Assembly (NCBI RefSeq): GCF_010119195.1
Contig: NZ_WRXL01000003.1
Location: 448,168 to 512,167, forward strand
DNA: 64,000 nucleotides
Source of the DNA: Haloarcula salina
GTDB lineage: Archaea; Halobacteriota; Halobacteria; Halobacteriales; Haloarculaceae
Reading direction: 5' to 3'
The translations under genes and the position numbers were made by a program. Positions 6,259 to 36,323 of the stretch are shown piece by piece; within the stretch, counting starts at the first letter, position 1; the number at the start of each line of letters is the position of its first letter. A model generated the notes under the pieces. That model saw only the letters and a list, made by a program, of their open reading frames with translations. It did no database searches and was not told the DNA's origin.

Positions 6259-6936
6259 ATGCCAATCGAACAGCGCGGCGACGCGTCCGTCGTCACGCAC
6301 GCGCTGGCGAAGGACGAACTGACACGAATCCGGGACGTCGAGACCGAGCAGGTCGCGTTCCGCAAGGGACTGGTCCGCCTCGGCCGCATCTGCGGCTACG
6401 AGATCATCGACGGCCGGATGGAGACCGAGTACACCGAGGTCCAGACCCCGCTGACGACGACGATGGGCGAGCGCGTCAAAGGTCTCGACGACGTGGTCAT
6501 CGTCAACGTCCTCCGGGCGGCGACGCCGTTCGTCGAGGGCCTGTTGAAGGCGTTCCCGCGCGCCAGACAGGGCGTCATCTCCGCCAGCCGCGACGAGGAG
6601 GCCGGCATGAACGAGGACGGGGAGTTCCCCATCTCCGTCGAGTACGTCAAGCTCCCCGAGATCACCGAGGACGACACGGTCATCGTCGCCGACCCCATGC
6701 TCGCGACCGGCTCGACGATGTCGACGGTGCTGGAGTACATCGCCACGGAGAAGACCGAACCGGAGAACCTGCTCGTCCTCGCCGCCGTCTCCGCGCCCGA
6801 GGGCATCGTCCGCGTCTCGGAGGCCGACGCCGACGCCGACATCATCAGCGTCGCTATCGACGACGAACTCGACGAGGACGGCTTCATCGTCCCCGGCCTC
6901 GGCGACGCCGGTGACAGGGCGTTCCGGACCACCTGA
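6259..6936 (+). CDS. upp: Uracil phosphoribosyltransferase
   Basis: 225 residues, normal length. It converts uracil plus PRPP to UMP in pyrimidine salvage. The PRPP-binding loop [14 protein letters not shown] lies around residues 138-151, and the C-terminal uracil-binding region ends [10 protein letters not shown], both diagnostic for UPRT. It has its own promoter and stands alone. A pyrimidine biosynthesis enzyme, PyrE, is encoded 41 kb away in this window. Confidence 0.97.
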
Positions 6937-7205
6937 GTCCGGCCACGAGCACTCCCGCGACGAGGCGGAACACTTTTGTCTCCGACTCCGGTTACCAGCA
7001 GGCGTCGCGATTTCTCGTCCGTGGCCGGCTCCGCAACCCGATTGTTTCGCGTGGAGACCGACAGACAGCTGCGGAATTTTTCTCCAGTAGAAACGGTACT
7101 GACACCGTGGCGCGACCCGCGCGTCGGGCCAGCCAATCGCGAGCGCGGTCGGGTCCGGTCGTCTCACACCGGGGGTTTTTCCTGTCGAGCGAGCGGCGAC
7201 CCTGT

Positions 7206-7643
7206 ATGGGTCGACGCCGATACCGCATCGCGGACACCGCCCAGCAGGTCGTCGGGGGGTTCCTCCTCGCCGGGCCGTTCGTCGTGACCGAGGAGGTGTG
7301 GGTCCTGGCGGCGAGCATGCGGTGGTATCACGCCGTCGCGGTCGTCGCCATCGTCTTCGCCATCGGCTACGGGGCGCTGTACAAGGCCGATGCCGGGCGC
7401 GACGTGGAGCGCGAAGCGGAGGTCGCCGGAATCCCGATTCGCTTCGTCTCGCTGATGCTCGTCGCGTTCGGGTCCGTGGGGATCCTGGCTGTCGCGCTGA
7501 CCGCCCCCGATACCTTCCTCGTCAAGGGCGGCATACTCCCGAATCCGACGCGGATGGCGGTCACGCTGACGACGCTGAAGGCGGTCGCCGTCGGCGCGAT
7601 CTTCAGCGTCGTGGGCGCCGCGACCGCCGACAGCGTGTTCTGA
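7206..7643 (+). CDS. DUF2391 family membrane protein
   Basis: 145 residues from the ATG at 7206. The frame is open farther upstream, but that stretch is arginine-rich and unlike a protein N-terminus. About four hydrophobic segments are visible (roughly 13-33, 37-58, 76-97, 118-140), giving a small integral membrane protein of the DUF2391 type (TIGR02587-like). Function unknown. It ends 50 bp before the next gene, which has its own TATA box. Confidence 0.75.
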   Translation: MGRRRYRIADTAQQVVGGFLLAGPFVVTEEVWVLAASMRWYHAVAVVAIVFAIGYGALYKADAGRDVEREAEVAGIPIRFVSLMLVAFGSVGILAVALTAPDTFLVKGGILPNPTRMAVTLTTLKAVAVGAIFSVVGAATADSVF

Positions 7644-10617: not shown

Positions 10618-10753
10618 AGCCTAGGCCGGAATTTGAACCAGAGGAAGACTCGCGTCGCTCGTCTTCCAGGGATTCAAATCCCGGTTCTGTCTCACACGTC
10701 ACAACGGGACGCGGCGCGACGAGACGCGCCGCTCGCAGTTTGCTTCCGAGAAG
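10618..10753 (-). repeat. Remnant unit 1: decayed tRNA-Thr 3' end with mirrored T-arm hairpin
   Basis: Positions 10618-10637 are identical to the 3' end of tRNA-Thr (10887-10906); identity stops in the T-arm. Inside the unit a perfect 7-bp stem, GGAAGAC (10643-10649) with GTCTTCC (10661-10667), encloses an 11-nt loop. Just outside it, GGGATTCAAATCCCGG at 10669-10684 is the T-arm in opposite orientation to the remnant. Unit length is 136 bp to the next copy. The rest of the tRNA (D-arm, anticodon) is absent, so it is not a functional tRNA. Confidence 0.8.
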
Positions 10754-10886
10754 AGCCTAGGCCGGAATTTGAATCCGGAGTCAGACGGTTCTGCTCGTCT
10801 CGCGGTGCTCGACTGCGCGGACTGCGACTGACAGGGATTCAAATTCCGCGTGGTGCTTTCGCTCCTCACGTCCGTTCGTCGCAGAA
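10754..10886 (-). repeat. Remnant unit 2: decayed tRNA-Thr 3' end with mirrored T-arm hairpin
   Basis: Positions 10754-10778 (25 bp) match tRNA-Thr 10887-10911 exactly. The copy is followed by a stem GTCAG (10780-10784) / CTGAC (10828-10832) and by GGGATTCAAATTCC (10834-10847), the T-arm in inverted orientation. The spacing to the functional tRNA copy is 133 bp, close to the 136 bp of unit 1, although the spacer sequences differ. Confidence 0.8.
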
Positions 10887-10958
10887 AGCCTAGGCCGGAA
10901 TTTGAATCCGGGGTCTCGTCCTTACCAAGGACGCGCTTTACCGCTAAGCTACCCAGGC
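10887..10958 (-). tRNA. tRNA-Thr (anticodon GGT)
   Basis: The minus strand folds into a complete cloverleaf of 72 nt. The acceptor stem GCCTGGG/CCTAGGC has one G-U pair; the D-stem is GCTT/AAGC; the anticodon stem CGTCC/GGACG holds the loop TTGGTAA (anticodon GGU); the T-stem CCGGA/TCCGG holds loop TTCAAAT. No CCA is encoded. No intron is seen. A TATA-like CCTAAAGAC lies about 30 bp upstream of the 5' end. Its 3' end is repeated twice just downstream. Confidence 0.95.
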
Positions 10959-14266: not shown

Positions 14267-14337
14267 GCGCCGTTGGTCCAGTGGTAGGACAGAGCCTTCC
14301 CAAGGCTCTAGCCCGGGTTCAATTCCCGGACGGCGCA
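14267..14337 (+). tRNA. tRNA-Gly (anticodon CCC)
   Basis: 71 nt with a full cloverleaf. The acceptor stem is GCGCCGT/ACGGCGC with discriminator A; the D-stem GTCC/GGAC; the anticodon stem GAGCC/GGCTC around loop TTCCCAA; the T-stem CCGGG/CCCGG around TTCAATT. No encoded CCA and no intron. Unlike the other two tRNA genes in this window, no duplicated 3' end is visible downstream. Confidence 0.95.
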
Positions 14338-14444
14338 TTCTACTGCGAGCAGTTCGTGAGCTCCCTCCGCAGTGTTTTGAACTCGACCGGCGACCCGCGG
14401 ACCGCGGGATACTTGTCGGGGCCGGGCCTACCGAGGGCCAACAG

Positions 14445-36127: not shown

Positions 36128-36240
36128 ACGCCAGGACTGGGATTTGAACCCGATGCCAGACCTCGCTGTGTTCGGTCTGCCGTGATTCAAACCCCAGCCA
36201 TCGAGTATGTGCCGCTCACGAAGTTGCTCGCGGCAAAAGT
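36128..36240 (-). repeat. Remnant unit: decayed tRNA-Ser 3' end with mirrored T-arm hairpin
   Basis: Positions 36128-36151 (24 bp) are identical to 36241-36264 at the 3' end of tRNA-Ser. The unit then has a 6-bp stem CAGACC (36157-36162) / GGTCTG (36174-36179) and GATTCAAACCCCAG (36184-36197), the T-arm in inverted orientation. It has the same design as the two units beside tRNA-Thr, with a 113-bp repeat period. No anticodon or D-arm is present. Confidence 0.82.
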
Positions 36241-36241
36241 A

Positions 36242-36323
36242 CGCCAGGACTGGGATTTGAACCCAGAATCCCGAAAGGGAACACGCTTTCCAGGCGTGCG
36301 CCTTACCGTTCGGCCATCCTGGC
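36242..36323 (-). tRNA. tRNA-Ser (anticodon GGA)
   Basis: 82 nt class II tRNA. Acceptor stem GCCAGGA/TCCTGGC with discriminator G; anticodon stem CACGC/GCGTG with loop CTGGAAA (anticodon GGA); a long variable arm containing TCCC-TTTC-GGGA; T-stem CTGGG/CCCAG around TTCAAAT. No encoded CCA, no intron. A TATA-like CCTTAATC lies about 30 bp upstream, at the 3' end of the preceding small gene. Its 3' end is duplicated 113 bp downstream. Confidence 0.95.

What the first reader, a model, noticed from the sequence alone, without database searches (positions are those of the whole stretch)
10618..10911. Tandem decayed tRNA-Thr 3' ends with mirrored T-arms
Two units of 136 and 133 bp precede the functional tRNA-Thr, each beginning with its last 20-25 bp and containing the T-arm again in opposite orientation (10669-10684 and 10834-10847), with a short stem between. 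A read-through RNA would pair the T-arm with its own complement and form a long hairpin. Tandem tRNA 3' ends are classical attachment sites, but the inverted T-arm within 50 bp of each is unusual.
Basis: seen in the sequence. Interest (0 to 1): 0.72.

Follow-up and report, generated by a model that had tools for sequence, protein, structure and literature searches.

The report
tRNA-tail hairpin repeats of haloarchaea
In salt-loving archaea, many tRNA genes are followed by short repeats in which a conserved hairpin is framed by a forward and a backward copy of that tRNA's own last 22 bases; I found no description of this family, and its sequence looks like a small insertion or recombination device rather than random decay.

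Summary
Downstream of tRNA-Thr(GGU) (10887-10958, minus strand) lie two units (10754-10886 and 10618-10753). Each unit contains a leading hairpin, an inverted copy of the tRNA tail, a hairpin core, and a direct copy of tRNA positions 52-73. The tRNA-Ser in the same window has one too. In this genome 19 of 41 tRNA genes carry such units, each built from that tRNA's own tail. A covariance model of the hairpin hits 51 of 53 sampled haloarchaeal genomes and none of 242 other genomes of the phylum. In four Haloarcula genomes essentially every hit lies 3' of a tRNA. The core covaries, keeps conserved mismatches and coupled unpaired linkers, and occurs with different arms at different tRNAs, once identically in two families. 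Tail, inverted arm and tRNA track each other. "Decayed" is therefore wrong. "Attachment-site-like" fits the duplicated block (T-loop to base 73), but no carrier element was found. Best guess (0.42): a small hairpin insertion/recombination cassette acting at tRNA T-loops as a folded strand. Main rival: an RNA element of the tRNA trailer. Not in Rfam; no literature match found.

The parts
10887..10958 (-). functional tRNA-Thr (anticodon GGT); its positions 52-73 are 10887-10908
   Evidence: ARAGORN, Rfam RF00005 66.8 bits
10754..10886 (-). unit 1 (133 bp): leading hairpin region 10849-10886, inverted tail, core, direct tail copy
   Evidence: covariance-model hit G000:C8:458921-459020 = 10754-10853
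10754..10775 (-). direct copy 1 of tRNA-Thr positions 52-73
   Evidence: identical
10835..10848 (+). inverted T-arm of unit 1
   Evidence: 100% complementary over 14 nt
10776..10835 (-). core hairpin of unit 1 (CCTGTCAGTCGCAG...ACCGTCTGACTCCG)
10618..10753 (-). unit 2 (136 bp): leading hairpin region 10685-10753, inverted tail, core, direct tail copy
   Evidence: covariance-model hit G000:C8:458785-458855 = 10618-10688
10618..10639 (-). direct copy 2 of tRNA-Thr positions 52-73 (21 of 23 identical over the tested tail)
10670..10684 (+). inverted T-arm of unit 2
   Evidence: 93% complementary over 15 nt
10640..10670 (-). core hairpin of unit 2 (CCTGGAAGACGAGCGACGCGAGTCTTCCTCT)
36242..36323 (-). 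tRNA-Ser (GGA), second tRNA of the window that carries a unit
36129..36241 (-). unit downstream of tRNA-Ser (113 bp), tail copy at 36129-36150 (22/23)
   Evidence: covariance-model hit G000:C8:484296-484368 = 36129-36201

Best explanation
The units are a family of small, gene-less, tRNA-associated insertion/recombination cassettes of Halobacteria. A portable hairpin core becomes installed immediately 3' of a tRNA so that the tRNA's T-loop-to-end block (positions 52-73) is present twice as a direct repeat. The tRNA stays intact, as with T-loop-type integrase attachment sites. A further, inverted copy of the same block lets the sense strand of the unit fold into an imperfect hairpin: tail stem, unpaired linkers, a second stem with a conserved T.T mismatch, and a variable tip. 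I propose that this folded single strand is the substrate of the recombination machinery, in the manner of an attC site. I also propose that tandem arrays grow and shrink by exchange between the identical tails. SHOWN by sequence: the anatomy, the exact 52-73 block, tRNA specificity of both arms, the shared core, covariation and conserved mismatches, tandem arrays, class-wide distribution, strict association with tRNAs in four genomes, and strand bias of the wobble pairs. INFERRED: mobility, a recombinase, the folded single strand as substrate, and exchange between tails. NOT identified: the enzyme, and how the arms become those of the host tRNA.
For: (1) Identity between copy and tRNA is sharply bounded: positions 52-73 at 0.87-1.00, with <=51 and +1 and beyond mostly at background; this is the identity block expected of a T-loop attachment site. 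(2) The core is portable: the same 39-nt core stands beside tRNA-Leu(UAA) in G000 and tRNA-Cys in G077, a different family, each with its own tRNA's arms; cores resemble each other more within a genome across different tRNAs than expected (z 7.0). (3) Tandem arrays of up to 4-5 units: tRNA-Glu in G002 with about 122-bp period and tRNA-Gly in G077. (4) Structure under constraint: covariation score 0.247 vs 0.096 +/- 0.010 shuffled, 0/500; T.T mismatch in 106 of 132 cores and unpaired linkers coupled to each other, CT..C 107 vs CT..T/G 4 and A..T/G 45 vs A..C 5, p = 2e-29. (5) Strand-specific folding: wobble-preserving changes exceed the mirror-image ones in the tail stem (A>G 11.5% vs T>C 4.9%; C>T 10.2% vs G>A 2.2%), yet G.T:A.C is 4:9 in the core stem (4:2 in the second, smaller set) and 91:49 in the tail stem, against 88:4 in the tRNA stems of the same loci. 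(6) The core module also occurs outside tRNAs, in a dispersed non-tRNA repeat of G172 and in G062, which speaks against a purely tRNA-bound role.
Against: No recombinase was identified. No unit was found in phage records, and the single plasmid match has no annotated tRNA or integrase nearby (the plasmid gene table lists no RNA genes). No cargo-bearing unit was seen: unit length is 101-175 bp at 5-95%. The Leu(UAG) unit, including its leader, is conserved end to end across many families, which looks like function or very long residence rather than mobility. The displaced tail should decay if it were only a scar, but it does not. No closely related pair with and without a unit was examined, so insertion itself was not seen. 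Sense-strand wobble tolerance also fits RNA.
Confidence: 0.42

Rival explanations
1. RNA element of the tRNA trailer. The pre-tRNA is transcribed through the unit; the inverted arm can pair with the tRNA's own tail (misfolded) or with the copied tail (released), acting as a switch on tRNA folding or 3' processing, or the hairpin mimics the acceptor/T helix and is a decoy for processing enzymes.
For: The inverted arm can pair with either tail; tRNA, copy and inverted arm change together at position 57 among Leu(UAG) orthologues (17 A/A/A, 12 G/G/G, 5 discordant); sense-strand wobble bias in the tail stem; no run of five T stands between tRNA and tail copy in 113 first units; conservation of the Leu(UAG) unit across families.
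Against: Almost no G.U in the covarying core stem (4 G.T vs 9 A.C in 176 units, against 88:4 in tRNA stems); base 73, unpaired, is as conserved as the paired bases; presence and number vary between tRNAs and species; the core also occurs in non-tRNA repeats; no Rfam family matches. T-run statistics do not clearly distinguish tRNAs with and without units.
Confidence: 0.27
2. One reading: decayed remnants of ordinary integrative elements that used the tRNA 3' end as attachment site.
For: The duplicated block fits a T-loop attachment site; integrated elements are common at the same tRNAs, e.g. a 7-kb element with a tyrosine-integrase-like ORF at tRNA-Val.
Against: Same core, linkers and mismatches at all tRNAs and in nearly all Halobacteria; copies not decayed; real elements sit upstream of the units and have other duplicated blocks; no element or phage found with this hairpin at its end.
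Confidence: 0.1
3. Replication by-product: template switching at the palindromic T-arm makes inverted and direct tail copies, and conversion between the arms keeps them complementary without any function.
For: Arm-to-arm conversion would give compensatory changes without G.T intermediates; homogenisation of cores within genomes.
Against: A conserved core sequence, a conserved T.T mismatch and coupled unpaired linkers across the class are not expected from a generic process; conversion would erase the mismatch.
Confidence: 0.13

Closest known systems
T-loop-type attachment sites of tyrosine integrases in tRNA genes
   Same: Direct repeat from the T-loop to the last tRNA base, intact tRNA on one side, displaced tail on the other
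   Different: About 100-135 bp between repeats, no gene, inverted tail copy and conserved hairpin core, present at about half of all tRNAs of the genome, copies not decayed
Integron attC sites and attC clusters without integrase (CALIN)
   Same: Imperfect palindrome with complementary outer arms, unpaired central spacer, inner stem and variable tip; strand-biased; can occur in arrays (features as described in PMC8946536)
   Different: Arms are copies of the neighbouring tRNA tail instead of the RYYYAAC/GTTRRRY boxes; no cassettes with genes; no IntI identified
Short mobile repeats (SMR-A) and PATEs of Haloquadratum (PMC3119063)
   Same: About 110 bp, no gene, prominent inverted repeats, multicopy in haloarchaea, preference for palindromic targets, mobilisation unknown
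   Different: SMRs are described in transposon-derived repeats, with inverted terminal repeats of their own and no target duplication; here the arms are host tRNA tails and a 22-bp direct repeat flanks the unit
REP/MITE-type palindromic repeats
   Same: Dispersed, non-coding, imperfect hairpins
   Different: Strict tRNA association and target-matched arms

Membership tests
Integrase attachment site remnant at tRNA | Direct repeat extends from the crossover region to the 3' end of the tRNA | tested here: met
   Identity exactly at positions 52-73
Integrase attachment site remnant at tRNA | Repeats bracket an integrated element or a recognisable remnant with integrase or cargo | tested here: not met
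   Unit length 101-175 bp at 5-95%, no gene; hairpin absent from phage records
Integrase attachment site remnant at tRNA | Displaced copy evolves freely after integration | tested here: not met
   Copies 87-100% identical per position and tracking tRNA changes
Integron attC site | Imperfect palindrome folding into arms, unpaired spacer, inner stem, variable tip | tested here: met
Integron attC site | R boxes RYYYAAC / GTTRRRY | tested here: not met
   Corresponding stretch reads GTTCRAA, fixed by the tRNA T-loop; box consensus from general knowledge
Integron attC site | Associated IntI integrase and gene cassettes | not tested
   No cargo seen in about 240 units; a genome-wide search for IntI was not run
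Haloquadratum SMR-A | About 110 bp, inverted terminal repeats, palindromic target | tested here: inconclusive
   Size fits (median 126 bp); the inverted repeats are target-derived here; the T-arm is a palindromic target
Haloquadratum SMR-A | No target duplication | tested here: not met
   22-bp tail duplicated
Haloquadratum SMR-A | Sequence relation to HqIRS42/43/55 | not tested
Described RNA family | Match to an Rfam model other than tRNA | tested here: not met
   (only sub-threshold chance matches)
Described RNA family | Transcription of the unit | not testable with these tools
   Needs RNA-seq

The most novel reading that the evidence does not exclude
A new kind of genetic element: a portable hairpin that takes on, in both orientations, the last 22 bases of whichever tRNA gene it settles beside, either because its insertion copies the target (a folded-strand recombination system anchored on tRNA T-loops) or because the tail/anti-tail/tail triplet is a tRNA-specific RNA switch used throughout the Halobacteria.
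Probability: 0.4. Interest if true: 0.9.

Novelty: new variant of a known kind. Interest (0 to 1): 0.77.

Why it matters
The family sits beside about half of the tRNA genes in G000 and is in nearly every haloarchaeal genome sampled, yet it is absent from Rfam and I found no description in the open-access literature searched. If it is a recombination device, it is an archaeal counterpart of folded single-strand sites that uses tRNA T-loops as anchors, and its arms pose a clear question: how does one core acquire the inverted and direct tail of each different tRNA? If it is an RNA element, it would be a tRNA-specific control of tRNA maturation across a whole class of archaea. Either way the tail/anti-tail/tail layout makes direct predictions, and one RNA 3'-end data set plus one long-read data set would separate them.

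Tried and rejected
Decayed tRNA ends or chance GC-rich matches: rejected. Ends of known phages or plasmids: no haloviral match, one plasmid match with no annotated tRNA or integrase nearby. The 48 viral contigs matching the short pattern: none of those shown has the unit (output cut, so part of the viral list was not read). Transcription stop before the unit: T-run counts were uninformative. Bulge-helix-bulge splicing motif and kink-turn: considered by inspection of the loops and not matched (inference). 'DNA not RNA', on the G.T shortage of the core stem: weakened by the sense-strand wobble bias of the tail stem, so left open. Core as a strictly tRNA-bound sequence: rejected, it also occurs in a non-tRNA repeat. 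Literature searches gave no description; subscription papers and preprints are not in that library.

Full report
Setting. The window lies in a genome (G000, 3.79 Mb) whose genus is Haloarcula: relative G002 'same genus' has a chromosome of 3,034,613 bases, the length of Haloarcula rara NZ_CP119785.1, and G003 and G023 match Haloarcula sebkhae and H. mannanilytica in the same way. This naming is an inference from contig lengths.

Observation. tRNA-Thr(GGT) is on the minus strand, 10887-10958. Read in its direction, it is followed by unit 1 (133 bp) and unit 2 (136 bp). Each ends with a copy of the tRNA's last 22-23 nt (23/23 and 21/23), and each contains the T-arm in opposite orientation, 14-15 bp long. 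The sense and antisense hairpins are far more stable than shuffled sequences. The units are therefore real; they lie after the tRNA, not before it.

Not a local oddity. A search of the own genome with this stretch hit sites beside tRNA-Gly, Arg, Val, Lys and Leu, each with that tRNA's own 3' end. With all tRNAs collected, 19 of 41 usable tRNA genes carry at least one unit with both arms (22 units). The window's tRNA-Ser at 36242-36323 is one of them; its tRNA-Gly at 14267 has none. No comparable tail copy lies upstream of these genes (best upstream scores 11-16 of 23, apart from one spurious tRNA call). Over all collected loci, own tails occur downstream in 104 of 266 contexts, against 4 upstream and 9 for tails of another isotype; these loci were partly chosen through units.

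Distribution. The short signature TTYGAACCCTGNNAGNCG (inverted T-loop plus the start of the core) occurs in 177 of 391 genomes of the class and 56 of 86 genera, with one match of the reversed control pattern among the genomes listed. In named genomes most haloarchaeal matches lie 30-260 nt after a tRNA and are followed by its own tail (Halorubrum, Halosimplex, Natrinema, Halobacterium, Haloferax mucosum, Halorientalis and others), and the matches shown from other organisms are not (output partly cut). In four Haloarcula genomes 89 of 103 hits lie within 700 nt of a same-strand tRNA. Of the remaining 14, ten were fetched and read: three follow tRNAs missed by the tRNA search or table (Gln, Pro), several are units displaced from their tRNA by an inserted element, and one lies in an unrelated palindromic stretch.

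Anatomy. In the tRNA direction a unit consists of: a leader with a GC hairpin; the inverted tail; a linker (usually CTG, CTA, AGA, ACG or AGG); a stem NNAG-T-CG; a variable tip; CG-T-CTNN; a second linker (usually CTCC, CTTC, GCGT, CCGT); and the direct tail copy. The copied block is exactly tRNA positions 52-73: identity is 0.87-1.00 there, falls at position 51 and before, and falls again from the first base after 73. The inverted arm also abuts position 52. Unit length is 101-175 bp (5-95%, median 126) and core length 25-60 nt (median 44). Arrays reach four to five units.

Selection on structure. In 29 diverse units the covariation score is 0.247 against 0.096 +/- 0.010 in shuffles (0 of 500), with 54 cells changed on both sides against 17. 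Over 176 distinct units the core stem has 958 Watson-Crick cells, 4 G.T and 9 A.C. The T.T mismatch is kept in 106 of 132 cores, and the two unpaired linkers vary in step (p = 2e-29). In tRNA stems of the same loci G.T:A.C is 88:4, in the tail stem of the units 91:49. Strand-symmetric tests nevertheless show that the tail stem tolerates sense-strand wobble more than its mirror image (A>G 11.5% vs T>C 4.9%, p = 3e-4; C>T 10.2% vs G>A 2.2%, p = 7e-6). These counts are not corrected for relatedness. The folded strand is thus probably the tRNA-sense strand; whether as RNA or single-stranded DNA cannot be decided from these data.

Both arms belong to the host tRNA. Copies match their own tRNA over the acceptor part at 12.3 of 13 positions against 6.3 for other tRNAs. 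At T-loop position 57 tRNA, copy and inverted arm agree even among Leu(UAG) orthologues of different families (17 A/A/A, 12 G/G/G, 5 discordant). The inverted arm is also tRNA-specific, though less strictly (5.8 vs 4.8 of 7 positions).

The core is portable and old. The Leu(UAG) unit aligns end to end, exactly to the last base of the tail copy (query 194/195), in genomes of many families, so some units are old. Yet cores resemble each other more within a genome across different tRNAs than expected (z 7.0), with a weaker effect of the tRNA across families (z 3.3). An identical 39-nt core stands beside tRNA-Leu(UAA) in G000 and tRNA-Cys in G077, another family, each with the arms of its own tRNA. 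Convergence on a narrow consensus or conversion between units (shared T-arm sequence) could contribute; this was not separated from movement.

Relation to mobile elements. Integrated elements are frequent at these tRNAs but insert between tRNA and unit and have other duplicated blocks: an interval of about 20 kb at tRNA-Thr of G020, a 7-kb element with a tyrosine-integrase-like ORF at tRNA-Val of G002, attR-like ends in L135, L223, L366 and L372. The unit hairpin is absent from phage records, and the one plausible plasmid match has no annotated tRNA or integrase nearby. The core module also occurs in a second, non-tRNA dispersed repeat with arms GCGACCGGGCNGGGGCTTTC (93 matches of that arm in G172) as an additional inserted hairpin.

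Interpretation. The duplicated T-loop-to-73 block, the seamless tRNA, tandem arrays, the portable core and its presence in another repeat favour an insertion/recombination cassette; the imperfect palindrome with unpaired linkers, conserved mismatch and variable tip works like an attC site (features as given in PMC8946536). It is not filed as one: the attC boxes are not met. Against it stand the lack of an enzyme, of cargo and of an observed insertion. The RNA-switch reading explains why tail, anti-tail and tail stay matched, but not the conservation of unpaired base 73, the shortage of G.U in the core stem or the non-tRNA copies.

Literature. Searches of the open-access library gave no description. 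The nearest described elements are the short mobile repeats and PATEs of Haloquadratum (PMC3119063); tyrosine recombinases of archaea are reviewed in PMC8371274. Absence from this library is not proof of novelty.

Noticed in passing
L471:1029-1065, L472:986-1021, L473:1052-1094, L475:1059-1095 (G172); L476:1002-1038 and L477 (G062); base copies in L480, L483, L488: A second structured dispersed repeat (GGGACTGAAAGGGGC...CCCTATCC...GGATATGTCG..CAGCGACC-GCGACCGGGCGGGGGCTTTC) with 93 matches of its 3' arm in G172; some copies carry the same core hairpin as an extra insertion. Not in Rfam; nature unknown.
   Followed up: partly
L379:889-969 (tRNA-Glu, G002), L019:1653 onward (tRNA-Arg(CCT), G000), also L131 and L372: Tail copies interrupted by another double-hairpin insertion (CGAGAGACGC..GCGTCTCTCGACGTTCGCGAA..TTTGCTCACT) placed inside the T-stem, after which the tail continues.
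   Followed up: no
L371:576-7566 (G002, tRNA-Val(CAC)): A 7-kb integrated element with a tyrosine-integrase-like ORF (6426-7439, minus strand) whose inner end has a split T-arm: GTCGGCGGTTC, then hairpins, then TTCGAATCCGCC.
   Followed up: partly
G020:C1 1946952-1967618 (L376, L377): An interval of about 20 kb separates tRNA-Thr(GGT) from its units, presumably an integrated element.
   Followed up: no
L068 / G000:C9:286049-286401 (tRNA-Leu(CAA)): Variant downstream region that copies the variable-arm stretch (CGATCCGCTCCCGTAGGGGTCC) as well as the tail, unit length 292 bp.
   Followed up: no
window 14338-14375 and after many tRNAs of G000: A GC hairpin of the type TTCTGCxGCGAACnnnGTGAGCxGC directly after tRNA genes, also after some without a unit.
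   Followed up: no
G051 and G034: The two sampled haloarchaeal genomes without any hit of the unit model; useful for a co-occurrence search for the responsible enzyme.
   Followed up: no
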